Shown here piece by piece: positions 35,563 through 40,523 of a stretch of DNA of 64,000 nt; the first letter of the stretch is position 1; each line of letters opens with the position of its first letter. Source of the stretch: Methylococcales bacterium (GTDB taxonomy: Bacteria > Pseudomonadota > Gammaproteobacteria > Methylococcales > Methylomonadaceae); contig JAPLRS010000047.1 of the NCBI GenBank assembly GCA_026399015.1, positions 1 through 64,000 of the forward strand. The letters are read 5' to 3'. Below the pieces are notes generated by a model that worked only from the letters and a program-made list of their open reading frames with translations, had not been told where the DNA came from and made no database searches. The position numbers and the translations under genes were made by a program.

Positions 35563-35769
35563 TTAATTCTTAGCCTCTCTGCGTTTACGATAATCCGTCA
35601 CACTTTGAGCAGATACCCATATCACACCGTTTTCTTTAAAGTTACACGACTCAAAACCTTCCGGAATTATTAATGTTTTTAGCGCAGAGATGCTAATACC
35701 TAACAGCTTTGCAGCCGTCGCTTGTGAGTAATAAAGTTTACCTTGATGAGTAATTGTGTTTTTTGGCAT
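35563..35769 (-). CDS. Small helix-turn-helix protein (excisionase/AlpA-like)
   Basis: A 68-residue basic protein with a MerR/excisionase-type helix-turn-helix: YYSQATAAKLLGISISALKT (~residues 13-32), then a wing region (CNFKENGVIWVS) and a charged end TDYRKRREAKN. Proteins of this size act as excisionases or small regulators, often on mobile elements. Its 5' leader contains a perfect palindrome and is repeated ~960 bases away before a decayed copy of the gene (36694-36813). An autoregulatory role through the palindrome is likely but inferred. Confidence 0.75.
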   Translation of the reverse strand: MPKNTITHQGKLYYSQATAAKLLGISISALKTLIIPEGFESCNFKENGVIWVSAQSVTDYRKRREAKN

Positions 35770-35855
35770 ATTAATTCCTCATTTGTGATTAAGAGCCGGA
35801 AATATTTCCGGTTGTTGAGGAATACTTTAATCAGGAGTGGCGACAAATTGTGACG
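35767..35855 (-). promoter_or_regulatory. Palindromic leader/promoter element, copy 1
   Basis: The region upstream of the small HTH gene includes its start codon, the perfect palindrome CCGGAAATATTTCCGG (35796-35811) and, further upstream on the minus strand, a -10-like TTAAAGTATTCC. It ends at the motif whose plus-strand form is CGACAAATTGTGACG. The whole ~89-base block is homologous to 36724-36813, with the spacing between start codon and palindrome kept. Confidence 0.65.
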
Positions 35856-35952
35856 CAAATACTTGCCAGTAAAATTGAATAACTACATAGAATTTGATCA
35901 GCACTTTTTCTCAACATAATGAGGTTATGCAATAAATTAGTTTGCTTTATAA

Positions 35953-35975
35953 AGTGTAAGAATATATCTTACACT
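35953..35975. promoter_or_regulatory. Operator palindrome of the parDE module
   Basis: AGTGTAAGA (35953-35961) and TCTTACACT (35967-35975) form a perfect 9-bp inverted repeat around ATATA, 28 bases before the parD start. It fits a ribbon-helix-helix antitoxin operator. An A/T-rich -10-like stretch lies within it, so binding would block the promoter. Confidence 0.65.
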
Positions 35976-36003
35976 AACCTTAAACACTCTTTAGGAAATC
36001 ATT

Positions 36004-36264
36004 ATGGCACAAGCACGAACCCAAACCGTTAGTCTTGGTGAGCACTGGAACAACCTCATTGAAACATTACTTAAAAGTGGACGTTATGCAAGTGTGAGTG
36101 AAATTATGCGCGATTCCTTAAGATTGTTAGAAGAAAGGGAGGCTAATTCAAAATTACAATCTTTACGTAACGCGATCATAGAAGGGGAAGAAAGTGGTGA
36201 TGCGGGTGAATTATCTATGGAAATGATTAGGCAAGAAGCCAAAAAAGAAGTTGGCTTAATCTGA
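36004..36264 (+). CDS. parD: ParD-like antitoxin (ribbon-helix-helix)
   Basis: An 86-residue type II antitoxin: MAQARTQTVSLGEHWNNLIE, then GRYASVSEIMRDSLRLLEER (~residues 27-46), the RHH DNA-binding half typical of ParD/CopG. The C-terminus is acidic and would wrap the toxin. The ribosome-binding site AGGA is well placed before the ATG. The stop codon (TGA, 36262-36264) overlaps the proposed CTG start of the toxin gene, so the two are tightly coupled. Confidence 0.92.
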   Translation: MAQARTQTVSLGEHWNNLIETLLKSGRYASVSEIMRDSLRLLEEREANSKLQSLRNAIIEGEESGDAGELSMEMIRQEAKKEVGLI

Positions 36265-36560
36265 AAACGCGCAGGATTCATATACAATCATCTGCAAAAG
36301 AAGATCTTAAAAACATATGGCTATACTCCTATAAGAACTGGGGTGTAGATCAGGCTGATAGTTATTTTGATGAATTAAATGCTACATTCGCTTTAATCTC
36401 AGAGAGTCCAGAACTTGGTTTTGCCTGTGATTATATCCGTGAGAACTATAGACAATTCCACATCAACCGGCATTTAATTTTTTATTATTTTTCTGCGAGT
36501 AAAATTCATATCGTGCGGGTTTTGCATGACAGTATGAATTACAAAGAACGCCTTAAATAA
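36261..36560 (+). CDS. parE: ParE-like toxin with apparent CTG start
   Basis: A 99-residue RelE/ParE-superfamily toxin read directly from the sequence: TRRIHIQSSAKEDLKNIWLY at the N-terminus, YFDELNATFALISESPELG in the middle, then RQFHINRHLIFYYFSASKIH and VRVLHDSMNYKERLK at the end. This is a full-length ParE with the conserved C-terminal basic and aromatic residues. No in-frame ATG, GTG or TTG exists between the preceding in-frame stop (36228) and the body of the gene. The best start is CTG at 36261 in the CTGA overlap with the parD stop. ParE toxins poison DNA gyrase. Coding content is sure; the start codon is inferred. Confidence 0.82.
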   Translation: MKTRRIHIQSSAKEDLKNIWLYSYKNWGVDQADSYFDELNATFALISESPELGFACDYIRENYRQFHINRHLIFYYFSASKIHIVRVLHDSMNYKERLK

Positions 36561-36603
36561 TCAAGCACTATCTGATAAAGCCTGAACAAGTAAATCTGAT
36601 ATG

Positions 36604-36660
36604 AAAAAAAGCCTTCATCTAAAAACCGATTAGATCTTTAGACAAAGGCTTCATTTTTTA
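36604..36660 (+). terminator. Intrinsic terminator of the parDE module
   Basis: AAGCCTT (36609-36615) pairs with AAGGCTT (36645-36651), and inside it TCTAAA pairs with TTTAGA. The sequence CATTTTTTA follows. It lies ~45 bases after the parE stop. Confidence 0.72.
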
Positions 36661-36693
36661 AAGTCATTAGCATGGGAGTTTTTTGGCACCTGA

Positions 36694-36726
36694 TTAACCC
36701 TGTTTTGCGTTAGCTAAATTCGACAT
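36694..36726 (-). pseudogene. Ten-codon remnant of a second small HTH gene
   Basis: An ATG (36726) placed exactly as in the intact HTH gene relative to the duplicated leader opens a frame of ten codons, MSNLANAKQG, then TAA. The intact gene begins MPKNTITHQG, so the Gln-Gly at positions 9-10 is shared. Nothing resembling the rest of the HTH protein follows. This is probably the 5' end of a paralogue whose body was deleted. Confidence 0.5.
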
Positions 36727-36813
36727 GTGCATTCCCCGTTGGTGATTTATAACTGGAAACAATTTCCAGTTGTTGGAGAATACTATAATGGGGTGAAACG
36801 ACAAGTTGTGACG
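36724..36813 (-). repeat. Palindromic leader/promoter element, copy 2
   Basis: Homologous along its whole length to the leader at 35767-35855: same start codon position, GTGATT, palindrome CTGGAAACAATTTCCAG (36753-36769), TTGTTG, GAATACTATAAT and ACAAGTTGTGACG. The palindrome arms differ from copy 1 (CTGG/CCAG versus CCGG/CCGG), but pairing is kept by matching changes. The two copies are in direct orientation and bracket the parDE module. Confidence 0.68.
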
Positions 36814-36853
36814 GTCTAGAAAATCTTTAGGTAATACCTAAAAGATAAGTAGA

Positions 36854-37270
36854 TTAGAGCTTCTCTAGGTTTGAGGCAACTTTTGCAAACTCAGTAAAAT
36901 CTAATAGGTGGTTCGTTATAATGCTGTAAACAATCTGCCAGTTAATGGCATCATAGTTATGCACGGCGATATTTCTAAATCCAATCGCTTTTTTTAGATT
37001 TGTGGCTAAAGAATCACTAATCAAACCACTTTGTTCGAGTTGATCAAATGTTTGGCCCATTGTGTTGGGCGGTGGTAGGTCCATACAAGAGATAAGATGA
37101 GCACCAATATCTACACAGAGTTGTACTGCTCGGCTTAAGTTAAGTGAGATAATATCTTGTAGGTCAATATCTGAGATCAATATAGAGGGATCATTTGGGC
37201 ATTTTGTCTCAATTCGCTGTAAACATCGGCGTAAGGACTCTAATTTTTGTGCAATTATTTCCCTATCCAT
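36854..37270 (-). CDS. hepT: HepT-like toxin (DUF86)
   Basis: A 138-residue all-helical HEPN protein. The catalytic/ligand motif Rx4HxY is present as RNIAVHNY (~residues 107-114) after the conserved FRN-type approach KKAIGF. HepT proteins are RNases or AMP-acceptor toxins, neutralised by the partner nucleotidyltransferase, which AMPylates the Tyr of this motif. The gene begins within the last 16 bases of the mntA-like gene, the usual tight coupling of this module. Confidence 0.9.
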   Translation of the reverse strand: MDREIIAQKLESLRRCLQRIETKCPNDPSILISDIDLQDIISLNLSRAVQLCVDIGAHLISCMDLPPPNTMGQTFDQLEQSGLISDSLATNLKKAIGFRNIAVHNYDAINWQIVYSIITNHLLDFTEFAKVASNLEKL

Positions 37271-37680
37271 AACGCTCTCCGTTCTGCCAATATTCGGTTA
37301 CGATAAGGCATAAAATCCGCCTGATCAAATAGGTTTCTGCTTATTAGTTGGCCGTAGAGAGTGTCGCTACCAAATAAACGTCGACCATGTTTTAATATTT
37401 GGCCTAATAGAGGTACACCGGTTACTTTTAAATCAATTAAATCAATCGGCCTGCCGGTTGCTTCTGCTAAGGCAGAAATAATGTGTATTTGTTCATCTGC
37501 ACTTAAGGTTTTTTTTGCTAAAACAGCAATATCCAAATCACTATCGACTCTGGCTTGGCCTTTTGCAACAGAGCCAAATAAGATGGCTAACTCTAGGTCT
37601 GTAAATTCATTTAATACTTTTCTAAGAATGTTATCAATTTCATCATATTGATCTGCAGAAGATGAAGTAGTTGAGCTCAT
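37255..37680 (-). CDS. mntA: MntA-like nucleotidyltransferase antitoxin
   Basis: A 141-residue minimal nucleotidyltransferase with the motif GS-x10-DxD: GSVAKGQARVDSDLDIAVL (~residues 35-53), which chelates the catalytic metals. In characterised pairs this protein transfers AMP to the HepT tyrosine and so disarms it. It lies upstream of and overlaps hepT on the same strand. It is intact and has both Asp residues. Confidence 0.9.
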   Translation of the reverse strand: MSSTTSSSADQYDEIDNILRKVLNEFTDLELAILFGSVAKGQARVDSDLDIAVLAKKTLSADEQIHIISALAEATGRPIDLIDLKVTGVPLLGQILKHGRRLFGSDTLYGQLISRNLFDQADFMPYRNRILAERRALWIGK

Positions 37681-38358: not shown

Positions 38359-40523
38359 CTATTTTTTTAAAGCTTTTGCAAAGGCGTTAGCCATACTGTT
38401 TTGCACAATAGGCTGAGGTTTAGCTTTGTTGGGTGTTTTGATAGTTTTTCTATCGGGTTTACTTTCTACAAAATCTTCATCAGTAGTGGTTTTCATGGAT
38501 AATGAAATTCGCTTACGCTCTGCATCCACTTCTAATACTTTTACTTTAACCATATCGCCTGTTTTTACGGCATCTCTTGGGTCTTTTATAAAGGTATCAG
38601 ATAGATGTGAGATATGAATTAAACCATCTTGATGCACGCCAATAGCGGATCTCGGCCAGGCTTTTCTAGTTCTTGCAAAATATCCGTAACGGTCGGTAAA
38701 CCAAAGTCTGCATTGGTATAGTTGCCAGGGTTTAGCGAGCGTAAAAATTGGCTTTGGCCAATTAAATCTCGAATAGATTTTCCAGTATTATCAATAATGG
38801 CTTCTACTACAGGATAGGCTTCTGGATGCACGGCGGAAGCATCTAAAGGATTATCGCCATTCATGACTCTTAAAAAACCTGCCGCTTGTTCGTAAGCTTT
38901 ATCACCTAATCGAGGCACTTTTTTGAGTTGTTTACGATTTAAGAAAGGGCCATTGTCATTTCTAAAGGCGACGATATTTTCGCTCACACTGGCTGATAAG
39001 CCCGATACTTGTTTAAGTAAAGAAACTGAGGCCGTATTAACATCTACCCCTACGGCGTTTACGCAATCTTCCACAACGATGTCTAAACTTTTGGCTAATT
39101 GAAATTGATTAACATCATGTTGATACTGACCTACGCCTATAGATTTAGGATCAATTTTAACCAATTCTGCTAAAGGATCTTGTAAGCGACGGGCTATAGA
39201 AACAGCGCCTCGTAAAGATACATCGAGTTCTGGAAATTCTTTAGCTGCAAGTTCAGACGCAGAGTAAACAGATGCGCCTGCTTCAGAAACCGTAATCTTG
39301 GTAAATTTTAGTTCGGGATGGCGTTTAATGACATCGGCTACTAATTGGTCAGTTTCTCTAGAGGCTGTGCCATTACCAATACTAACTAGCGATACTTGAT
39401 GTTGGGCAATTAATTTAGCGAGGGTCGAAATAGATTCATCCCATTGTTTACGCGGTGGATGTGGGTAAATGGTATCGGTACCTAAGACTTTGCCGGTGGC
39501 GTCAATAATAGCGACTTTAACACCGGTACGAATACCTGGATCTAGGCCCATGGTGGCTTTTGATCCTGCCGGCGCGGCTAATAATAAGTCTTTTAGATTG
39601 TTGGCAAATACTTTAATAGCCTCTGTTTCTGCAGCTTCTCTTAAACGCATTTTTAAGTCTAAATCAATGCGGGTAAACAGTTTAATTTTCCAAGCAAAAC
39701 GCGCTGTTTCTGCTAACCATGCATCTGCGGGTTTAGTGGTATCGGTAACATTAAGATGTTGAGAAACAAATTGGGTGCACAATAAATGCGCGTCTTTTTC
39801 TTCGAGCCCTGGTTTAAGATTAATGGTTAATAAATCTTCATTTCGACCACGGAATAAAGCTAAAGCGCGGTGCGATGGAATTTTATTGATGGCTTCTTGG
39901 TAGTCAAAGTAATCTTTAAATTTTTCTGCGACTTGTTCTTTTTCTGGGACAACTGTCGCATGAATAATACCGTCTTTCCATACGCGCTCACGCAGCTCTG
40001 CTAAGAGTTCTGCGCTTTCAGAAATGCGTTCCATGATAATTTGTCTGGCGCCTTCTAAGGCGGCGGCCACATCAGGGACTTCTTTATCGGTATTAATGTA
40101 AGCAACCGCGACCTCTGTTGGAATAACACTACGATCGTCTAAGATGTTGTCGGCTAAGGGCTCTAAACCCGCTTCTTTAGCAATTTGGGCTTTAGTTCGG
40201 CGCTTAGGTTTATAAGGTAAATATAAATCTTCTAACAGAGTTTTAGTGTCGGCATCAATAATGGCTTTTTCTAATTCTGGGGTGAGTTTGCCCTGTGAGT
40301 TAATGCTTTCTAAAATCGTTTCGCGTCTAGCATTTAGTTCACGTAAATAGCCTAGACGTTCTTCTAACTGTCTTAATTGCGTGTCATCTAAACCACCGGT
40401 AACTTCTTTTCGGTAACGAGCGATAAAGGGTACTGTGCTGCCTTCATCTAATAAAGCGACTGCGGCTTTTACTTGGTGGCTATTAACTGAGAGTTCTTCG
40501 GCTATGCGTAAGATGACATCCAT
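38359..40523 (-). pseudogene. tex: Transcription accessory protein Tex, broken by a frameshifting deletion
   Basis: Two reading frames together make an almost complete Tex/YhgF protein. The first (40523-38619, 634 residues) covers the helical N-terminal part, the YqgF-like domain (MGLDPGIRTGVKVAI) and the HhH domains, ending ELEKPGRDP then LLACIKMV and a stop. The second (38637-38359) resumes in another frame with GVHQDGLIHISHLSDTFIKD, the second half of the C-terminal S1 RNA-binding domain. Intact Tex has ~39 further residues between PGRDP and the S1 core (EFKTA..PGM..GVVTNVTNFGAFVDI). These are gone, with a frame change at the join near 38650. The product would lack its S1 domain. A sequencing or assembly error cannot be excluded. 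Confidence 0.85.

What the first reader, a model, noticed from the sequence alone, without database searches (positions are those of the whole stretch)
35767..36813. Duplicated palindromic leader bracketing parDE, with compensatory arm changes
Two ~89-base blocks in direct orientation share start codon position, a palindrome, a -10-like element and a CGACAA-TTGTGACG end. Copy 1 drives an intact small HTH gene; copy 2 leads into ten codons ending in the same Gln-Gly and then a stop. The palindromes differ (CCGG/CCGG versus CTGG/CCAG) but keep symmetry, which argues for selection on a protein-binding site or RNA hairpin after duplication. The arrangement suggests that parDE inserted between two tandem copies or that recombination removed one gene body. 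I know no described family of this leader.
Basis: partly seen in the sequence, partly recalled or inferred. Interest (0 to 1): 0.62.

Follow-up and report, generated by a model that had tools for sequence, protein, structure and literature searches.

The report
Shared DNA-damage-type promoter with RNA hairpin
The two repeated blocks look like leftover promoter-plus-hairpin leaders of a multi-copy, probably DNA-cutting enzyme gene in methane-eating bacteria, and their promoter part also stands in front of DNA-repair and phage-defence genes, which points to an undescribed damage- or attack-response circuit.

Summary
The duplication is real and far above chance. Both blocks (minus strand) are copies of one promoter/5'UTR module, found at 21 places in 9 of 200 genomes searched (own included), one genus only. 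Its usual partner is a 277-aa HNH/endonuclease-VII-like protein starting MSNLAFEIGFDHY. Copy 2 is that gene's leader plus an MSNLA stub, body deleted; copy 1 is fused to the HTH gene. The module has two parts. (1) A promoter, CGTCACAAnTTGTCG-N11-TAnnnT, also found, in one or more relatives, before recC, sbcD, yfbR, sspBC, brxF and others: 55 pattern hits versus 4 controls in eight leader genomes. TTGTCG-N11-TAnnnT equals the mycobacterial PafBC spacing. Sister HNH genes lie divergent from WYL-domain regulators, with a palindrome in the equivalent place. (2) A hairpin just after the predicted transcription start: 111 of 112 cells pair in 14 leaders, 19 by G-U, so an RNA hairpin rather than a DNA operator. 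Best reading: a WYL-regulated, probably damage- or phage-responsive promoter module of a repeatedly decaying HNH nuclease family. WYL binding, damage induction and the hairpin's function are inferred, not shown.

The parts
35767..35856 (-). Leader copy 1 (promoter + 5'UTR), fused to the HTH gene
   Evidence: covariance-model hit of 98.5 bits
35841..35855 (-). Box CGTCACAATTTGTCG of copy 1 (putative WYL-type operator overlapping the -35 region)
35824..35829 (-). -10 element TAnnnT (TAAAGT), 11 nt after TTGTCG
35794..35813 (-). RNA hairpin of copy 1 (core CCGGAAATATTTCCGG)
35563..35769 (-). 68-aa winged-HTH protein (excisionase/MerR-like model), now behind leader copy 1
   Evidence: ORF; AF2 mean pLDDT 82; weak Foldseek hits to Xis, RdfS and MerR proteins, best E 0.049; no Pfam family at E <= 0.01
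36724..36814 (-). Leader copy 2 (promoter + 5'UTR)
   Evidence: covariance-model hit of 103.5 bits
36799..36813 (-). Box CGTCACAACTTGTCG of copy 2
36782..36787 (-). -10 element TAnnnT (TATAGT), 11 nt after TTGTCG
36751..36771 (-). RNA hairpin of copy 2 (CTGGAAATTGTTTCCAG)
36694..36726 (-). Stub MSNLANAKQG-stop: first five codons of the HNH gene, then sequence resembling what follows the HNH gene in G011
36676..36689 (-). Remnant of a second HTH start (GTGCCAAAAAACTC; ATGCCAAAAAACAC in G011)
36004..36264 (+). parD antitoxin gene between the two leaders
   Evidence: Pfam PF03693
36273..36560 (+). parE toxin gene between the two leaders
   Evidence: Pfam PF05016
36604..36659 (.). Terminator-like fragment that in G011/G014 follows a 210-aa ORF; marks a junction in this patchwork
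   Evidence: by eye

Best explanation
The two blocks are two copies of the promoter/5'UTR module of a multi-copy HNH (endonuclease-VII-like) nuclease gene family of Methylococcaceae. Each once preceded such a gene, very likely with the HTH gene behind it as in relative G011. In copy 2 the nuclease body and nearly all of the HTH gene were lost; in copy 1 only the nuclease body was lost, which put the HTH gene under the leader. Step 1 (sequence shown, binding inferred): a box CGTCACAAnTTGTCG, set 11 nt before a TAnnnT -10 element and covering the -35 region, is bound by a WYL-domain activator, as PafBC, DriD and SiwR act elsewhere. Step 2 (inferred from the gene set and from known WYL activators): single-stranded DNA or another nucleic-acid signal of DNA damage or phage attack turns the activator on, raising recBCD, sbcCD, yfbR, defence genes, the nuclease and, in this strain, the HTH protein. 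Step 3 (structure shown by pairing, role inferred): the transcript starts close to an 8-bp hairpin upstream of the Shine-Dalgarno sequence, which most likely stabilises the mRNA or limits translation.
For: Leader recurs at 21 places in 9 of 200 genomes, with unlike upstream flanks, six times before an open HNH gene. HNH identity: PHROG endonuclease families E 6.6e-15 and 8.3e-14; modest HNH-fold matches over residues 70-175. Shared promoter: GTCANAANYTGTCG-N11-TANNNT with up to one mismatch gives 55 hits vs 4 reversed-pattern hits in the eight leader genomes, 24 vs 25 in the other 27; of 46 inspected sites in five genomes 40 lie outside ORFs of 120 aa or more. Sites chosen without the -10 have TAnnnT at spacing 11 in 19 of 25 unique cases, next best 4; ten of the 19 are not leader copies. 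Downstream genes: recC, sbcD, yfbR, sspBC, and brxF one gene further on. PafBC consensus tTGTCRgtg-8nt-TannnT (PMC5656591). WYL link: 5 of 7 subfamily-II HNH genes directly divergent from a WYL gene, a sixth with two genes between, with a palindrome and a TAnnnT 10-11 nt on; a second WYL family has the box at its start in 5 of 6; a third WYL gene lies just upstream of recC and its box in G000, G006, G011 and G014, and among 25 same-genus genomes occurs in exactly the five with 7 or more pattern hits. Seven of the eight leader genomes have one of the last two families. Hairpin: 111 of 112 cells paired, slid versions at most 65.2%.
Against: No expression or binding data. The five expanded genomes are close relatives, so co-occurrence is not independent. 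Several WYL families could claim the box; G015 has two pattern hits and no WYL match. The subfamily-I box is a poor palindrome (4-6 of 8), unlike the sister operators. In 15 of 17 distinct promoters the box contains GTCACA, a 4-of-6 match to a -35 hexamer at a long 19-nt spacing, so part of its conservation could be plain promoter. At the MSDPLL-type WYL genes the box points away from the gene. The recC box is kept in only 6 of 78 recC loci, all among the closest relatives. A LexA-like gene is present in 13 of 13 genomes searched, so this would be a second pathway. Shuffles reach the hairpin's covariation score in 30 of 500, and of two further copies outside that alignment one keeps the stem and one, decayed, does not.
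Confidence: 0.58

Rival explanations
1. The box is the operator of a WYL repressor (BrxR/CapW type) that silences nuclease and defence genes until infection, rather than of an activator.
For: The box covers the -35 region; some downstream genes are defence genes (sspBC, brxF); the MSDPLL-type WYL genes have the box at their own start, as autorepression would. BrxR and CapW were seen only as search listings with the start of the abstract.
Against: The best -35 match is only 4 of 6 at a 19-nt spacing and the box keeps a fixed 11-nt distance to the -10, which suits an activator; repair genes recC, sbcD and yfbR are included.
Confidence: 0.2
2. The box is bound by an unrelated factor (for example a MerR-type protein, which also uses long 19-nt spacers [recalled], or a sigma factor), and the WYL links are incidental.
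For: No direct binding evidence; GTCACA at 19 nt from the -10 in 15 of 17 distinct promoters; the subfamily-I box is less symmetric than the WYL-linked palindromes; G015 has box sites but no WYL match.
Against: Several separate kinds of WYL linkage and the match to the PafBC consensus.
Confidence: 0.2
3. The central palindrome is a DNA operator of the 68-aa HTH protein (autoregulation).
For: Symmetric in the two window copies; the HTH gene directly follows copy 1.
Against: 19 of the 20 cells that depart from Watson-Crick pairing in 14 leaders are G-U pairs, which preserve RNA but not DNA symmetry; no HTH homologue was found in G002, G015 and G027, which carry the leader.
Confidence: 0.04
4. 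A longer RNA switch (concerns the hairpin half only): ATTCCTCA before the hairpin pairs with the Shine-Dalgarno TGAGGAAT and shuts off translation, as in T4 homing endonuclease leaders.
For: 85.5% of cells pair, one position with changes on both sides; RNAalifold includes part of this stem; RBS sequestration is reported for I-TevI and mobE (PMC2988022 passages).
Against: The -10 position puts ATTCCTCA in the discriminator, probably not transcribed; pairing is weaker than for the hairpin, breaks in several copies, and shuffles reach its percentage in 47 of 500.
Confidence: 0.2
5. The leader is the end or target of a mobile element, and conservation reflects recombination (homing) rather than regulation.
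For: Multi-copy, different flanks, HNH nuclease, similarity that begins at or near the box.
Against: Box and spacing also stand before unrelated genes without the hairpin or the nuclease.
Confidence: 0.1

Closest known systems
Mycobacterial PafBC regulon (RecA-NDp promoters, tTGTCRgtg-8nt-TannnT)
   Same: TTGTCG, 11 nt, TAnnnT; repair genes among the targets; WYL-WCX regulators; a LexA-like gene beside it
   Different: Gammaproteobacterial methanotrophs, where the PafBC-like WYL-WCX class is said to be much less abundant (PMC6789036 passages); no PafB-PafC pair identified; an extra left half GTCACAA in the box; damage response untested
DriD of Caulobacter and SiwR of mycobacteria
   Same: WYL activators with (pseudo)palindromic sites over or between -35 and -10, at fixed distance from the -10 for DriD
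   Different: DriD site is ATACGAC(N7)GTCGTAT; other gene sets; no hairpin leader mentioned in the passages read
BrxR/CapW WYL regulators of defence systems
   Same: WYL proteins tied to BREX and CBASS defence (search listing only); here boxes stand before sspBC and a brxF-containing locus
   Different: Here the box has a fixed distance to the -10 and the set includes repair genes
T4-type free-standing HNH homing endonucleases with 5' hairpins (mobE, seg43(25))
   Same: Nuclease gene with a stem-loop just upstream of the RBS; seg43(25), a segD-like endonuclease, has a hairpin that does not sequester the RBS (passages)
   Different: Chromosomal bacterial family with a C-terminal helical part; homing not shown; transcription from its own regulated-looking promoter

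Membership tests
PafBC/RecA-NDp promoter | TTGTCR followed after 11 nt by TAnnnT | tested here: met
   19 of 25 unique clade sites selected without the -10; consensus from PMC5656591 passages
PafBC/RecA-NDp promoter | DNA-repair genes downstream | tested here: met
   recC, sbcD and yfbR by Pfam on one representative each; other targets are defence genes or unknown
PafBC/RecA-NDp promoter | Bound and activated by a PafB-PafC heterodimer with ssDNA | not testable with these tools
   single WYL-WCX proteins present; binding not tested
WYL transcription factor regulon | WYL gene linked to its operator | tested here: met
   5 of 7 subfamily-II HNH loci directly divergent; recC locus in four genomes; box at the start of 5 of 6 MSDPLL-type WYL genes. 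Linkage only; binding not tested
DriD regulon | ATACGAC(N7)GTCGTAT | tested here: not met
   Boxes have GTCG on the right but no ACGAC on the left (comparison by eye)
HNH/endonuclease-VII-like nuclease | Conserved HNH-type core and fold | tested here: met
   PHROG E down to 6.6e-15; invariant D104, W105, S106, D108, R109, N112, G115, Y116, N120, N129; VIA Z up to 6.8 over residues 72-171, modest, and Foldseek E above 0.001; no significant Pfam hit. Activity not tested
Homing endonuclease | Cleaves an empty allele and copies itself in | not testable with these tools
   Only multi-copy spread with different flanks seen
RBS-sequestering riboregulator | SD paired inside the transcript | tested here: inconclusive
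   85.5% of cells pair, but the 5' arm is probably not transcribed
Rfam RNA families | Match at gathering score | tested here: not met
   Only 5S rRNA in the window
parDE toxin-antitoxin | ParD and ParE domains adjacent | tested here: met

The most novel reading that the evidence does not exclude
Freshwater Methylococcaceae carry a second, LexA-independent response with PafBC-like promoter logic: WYL activators drive recBCD, sbcCD, nucleotide-pool, SspBC/BREX defence genes and a spreading HNH nuclease family. The nuclease carries its promoter and an mRNA hairpin along and, when it decays, leaves the regulated leader to capture neighbouring genes such as the HTH gene here.
Probability: 0.38. 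Interest if true: 0.75.

Novelty: new variant of a known kind. Interest (0 to 1): 0.6.

Why it matters
WYL damage responses are worked out in mycobacteria and Caulobacter; a gammaproteobacterial one with the PafBC spacing would suggest that this promoter logic is wider than thought. It would also link double-strand-break repair with phage defence under one box. The HNH family gives natural copies of regulator-operator pairs with changed half-sites (TTGTCG versus TTGTAAGGG), so specificity could be tested directly.

Tried and rejected
Rfam found nothing but 5S rRNA in the window. Pfam and NCBIfam gave no significant hit for the HNH protein, the PDB sequence search none below E 0.9, PADLOC none for HNH or HTH at E <= 0.01. 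Homing boundaries via an empty site were not determined. HNH subfamily III has other leaders, four of them 115-133 bp from a dif-like site; not pursued. A class-wide sample at E <= 1e-15 found the HNH protein only in the own genome among 369, and one search found it in 33 of 200 relatives, so the family looks restricted to methanotroph relatives, as far as sampled. The DNA-operator reading of the palindrome and the anti-Shine-Dalgarno switch were considered and ranked below the plain RNA hairpin. WYL-recC adjacency in wider bacteria: a WYL match was found in 3 of 80 recC loci, all in the nearest clade (some loci have under 1 kb upstream), so the adjacency is local. The own genome also has a WYL protein of another type (C40, MSNNHHDTL; also G011, G025), not considered further. 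Two of the ten pattern sites of the own genome (L167, L245) lie inside ORFs and are probably chance. Of the 48 sites of the five expanded genomes, 46 were counted; the two left out (G014:C64, G011:C216) are recC sites seen. In one search, 30 rows were reduced to 25 unique before counting, nine of the 19 at spacing 11 being leader copies or close kin; of 23 hits in other genomes 16 had loci to examine, and 3 of these 16 have TAnnnT at 11. G024, the ninth leader genome, is counted among the 'other 27' (2 hits, 0 controls).
Full report
Observation. Read on the minus strand, the blocks are 35856-35767 and 36814-36724. They align over their whole length with a local score of 44, against a maximum of 21 in 5,902 comparisons of copy 1 with random window segments. 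Shared parts, in order, are CGTCACAAnTTGTCG, ATTAnAGTATTC, an inverted repeat, a Shine-Dalgarno region and ATG.

What the leader belongs to. A search of 101 genomes (own included) found the leader in 8, all of the same genus. A covariance model (11 leaders, 8 base pairs) found 21 places in 9 of 200 genomes, own included. Going through the fetched loci, six places lead into an open 277-aa gene that begins MSNLAFEIGFDHY (G002, G006:C8, G011, G014:C113, G014:C187 cut by its contig end, G027:C200). Six lead into a stub or decayed remnant of it (window copy 2, the same in G022, G014:C3, G014:C160, G015 with only MSNL shared, G027:C160). Four are fused to the HTH gene or its remnant (window copy 1, the same in G022, G006:C13, G014:C2). 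Five are other cases (G024:C85 before a different gene with the hairpin kept, G027:C162 decayed, and three where mainly the promoter matches: G014:C133, G006:C9, G022:C133). The upstream flanks differ between places, so the unit has moved or been copied.

The nuclease. The 277-aa protein has no significant Pfam or NCBIfam assignment but matches phage endonuclease and endonuclease-VII profiles (PHROG 3322 E 6.6e-15, 1035 E 8.3e-14) and is 29-39% identical over part of its length to phage proteins, several annotated as endonucleases (20 of 23 records listed). An AlphaFold2 model from 25 relatives has mean pLDDT 91. Residues about 70-175 match HNH nucleases (Cas9 HNH, PacI, McrA, Cap5), with Foldseek E above 0.001 and VIA Z up to 6.8, so the fold support is modest. 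Relatives of the protein occur in 33 of 200 genomes, 9 of 55 genera; a class-wide sample of 369 found none outside the own genome at E <= 1e-15. Nuclease activity is not shown.

History of the window locus. In G011 the order is leader, HNH gene, then the HTH gene with 33 nt between. Window copy 2 keeps the leader and MSNLA, then jumps to what corresponds to the HNH-HTH gap and the first letters of a second HTH gene (GTGCCAAAAAACTC). Window copy 1 joins the leader's start region to the HTH start. I conclude that two leader-HNH-HTH units stood here and both lost the nuclease (inference from these alignments by eye; G011 is the only genome seen with an intact HNH gene beside the HTH gene). parDE and a fragment with a terminator that follows a 210-aa ORF in G011/G014 lie between. 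G022 shares the arrangement and keeps about 107 bp between the leaders that the window lacks.

The promoter half. The box with up to one mismatch gives 30 hits and 0 reversed-pattern controls in the eight leader genomes. With the -10 added, the counts are 55 versus 4 there and 24 versus 25 in the other 27 genomes of the genus. Box sites selected without reference to the -10 show TAnnnT at exactly 11 nt in 19 of 25 unique sites, the next-best spacing having 4. Nine of the 19 are leader copies or close kin; the other ten include sites before the sbcD operon (two orthologues), yfbR, a transglutaminase-like gene, a gene followed by brxF, and sspBC, and one inside a coding region (L172). In the other genomes 3 of 16 examined sites have the spacing. 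In five genomes 40 of 46 counted sites lie outside ORFs of 120 aa or more. Downstream genes by profile, one representative each: RecC (Exonuc_V_gamma, E 1.7e-93), SbcD, YfbR, a SLOG protein, DUF4007, and SspB/SspC and BrxF by PADLOC. The targets differ between genomes: recC in all five expanded genomes, sspBC in G014 and brxF in G011 only as far as seen. The SLOG site lacks a proper -10 and the Sir2 site of G018 lies outside the clade, so both are weaker. Within the box, GTCACA matches the -35 hexamer at 4 of 6 with a 19-nt spacer in 15 of 17 distinct promoters, so part of the conservation may be a weak long-spacer -35. A LexA-like domain is present in all 13 genomes searched (that profile also rings in some control archaea).

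The regulator. The mycobacterial PafBC promoter consensus is tTGTCRgtg - 8 nt - TannnT (passages of PMC5656591), the same distance as here. PafBC inserts between promoter DNA and sigma domain 4 and is activated by ssDNA (passages of PMC11804915). Its site is non-palindromic, and the PafBC-like WYL-WCX class is much less abundant in Proteobacteria (passages of PMC6789036). DriD is a homodimeric WYL activator whose site, ATACGAC(N7)GTCGTAT, overlaps the -35 at a fixed distance from the -10 (PMC12340889, passages and section 11). SiwR is a WYL activator binding an imperfect palindrome between -35 and -10 (passages of PMC10693628). WYL links found here: (a) in 5 of 7 subfamily-II HNH loci the gene is directly divergent from a WYL-WCX gene, in a sixth two small genes lie between, and the seventh is at a contig edge. 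The region upstream of the HNH gene holds ACCCTTAC-N7-GTAAGGGT, exact in 4 of 7, 7 of 8 and 6 of 8 letters in two more; TAnnnT follows at the equivalent 11 nt in five of these six and at 10 in one. In the seventh, L054, the script picked another repeat, and TTGTAA-N11-TATAAT was read by eye. (b) A second WYL family (MSDPLL) has the TTGTCG box at its own start in 5 of 6 full copies, pointing away from the gene. (c) A third (MNDQINRHH; WYL E 7.9e-16) stands just upstream of recC and its box in G000, G006, G011 and G014; among the 25 same-genus genomes it occurs in exactly the five with 7 or more pattern hits. In G022 the recC box is kept although the WYL gene is on another contig. (d) G002 and G027, leader genomes without the third family, have the second; G015 has no WYL match. 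These genomes are close relatives, so (c) and (d) are weaker than they look. Which of the WYL proteins acts on the window leaders is open.

The hairpin half. In 14 leaders, 111 of 112 cells of an 8-pair stem form standard pairs; slid controls reach at most 65.2%. Position 17/31 is CG in 5, UA in 5 and UG in 4. Nineteen cells are G-U, against one unpaired cell. That pattern fits an RNA stem better than a DNA operator. Shuffles reach the covariation score in 30 of 500, so the support comes mainly from retained pairing and the G-U changes; cells of related sequences are not independent. Of two further copies outside this alignment, G024:C85 keeps the stem and the decayed G027:C162 does not. A second stem between ATTCCTCA and the Shine-Dalgarno pairs in 85.5% of cells, but its 5' arm lies within about 8 nt after the -10 and is probably not transcribed. 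Other genes behind the box do not show the hairpin by eye, so promoter and hairpin look like separable modules.

The HTH protein. 68 aa, predicted winged-HTH (mean pLDDT 82); the best Foldseek matches include phage Xis, RdfS and MerR proteins, all with E above 0.04. Homologues are in 7 of 101 genomes, own included. Its capture by the leader in this strain makes it a likely member of the same response; that is inference.

Setting. A relative (G006) has a contig of the same number and length as CAIXAE010000009.1, an uncultured Methylococcaceae MAG, so the host is taken to be a gammaproteobacterial methanotroph.

Verdict. Shown: homology, recurrence, fixed spacing, gene set, stem pairing. Inferred: the exact decay history, WYL binding, activation by damage or phage, and hairpin function.

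Noticed in passing
L063 to L066 (G026, G016, G018, G020), 115-133 bp upstream of HNH genes: HNH subfamily-III genes lie next to a sequence matching a dif consensus recalled from memory (ATTTAACATAATATACATTATGCGAA), in four genomes.
   Followed up: no
L039 3929-3944 and L040 2601-2616: Upstream of the MNT-HEPN pair in G011/G014 the box occurs with a different palindrome (CACTAAACTTTAGTG) and a degenerate -10.
   Followed up: partly
L252 (G022:C5) and L265, upstream of recC: A reverse-transcriptase-like sequence stands where the WYL gene stands in relatives, with the recC box kept; identified by eye only.
   Followed up: no
window 38359-38637 and 38619-40523: A protein that looks like Tex (by eye) is split over two overlapping ORFs, suggesting a frameshift or assembly error.
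   Followed up: no
window 36854-37680: HepT/MNT-type pair beside parDE; in G011/G014 two further small genes that look like VapBC by eye lie between it and the leader.
   Followed up: partly
G000:C29:57598-58440 (L067): The window genome keeps an intact, diverged HNH relative (300 aa) elsewhere, with another leader; its G022 counterpart has an in-frame TGA.
   Followed up: no
L042 6681-6971 (G035): An HTH homologue is followed by a 96-aa protein that looks by eye like a lone WYL-type domain; Pfam gives no hit.
   Followed up: partly
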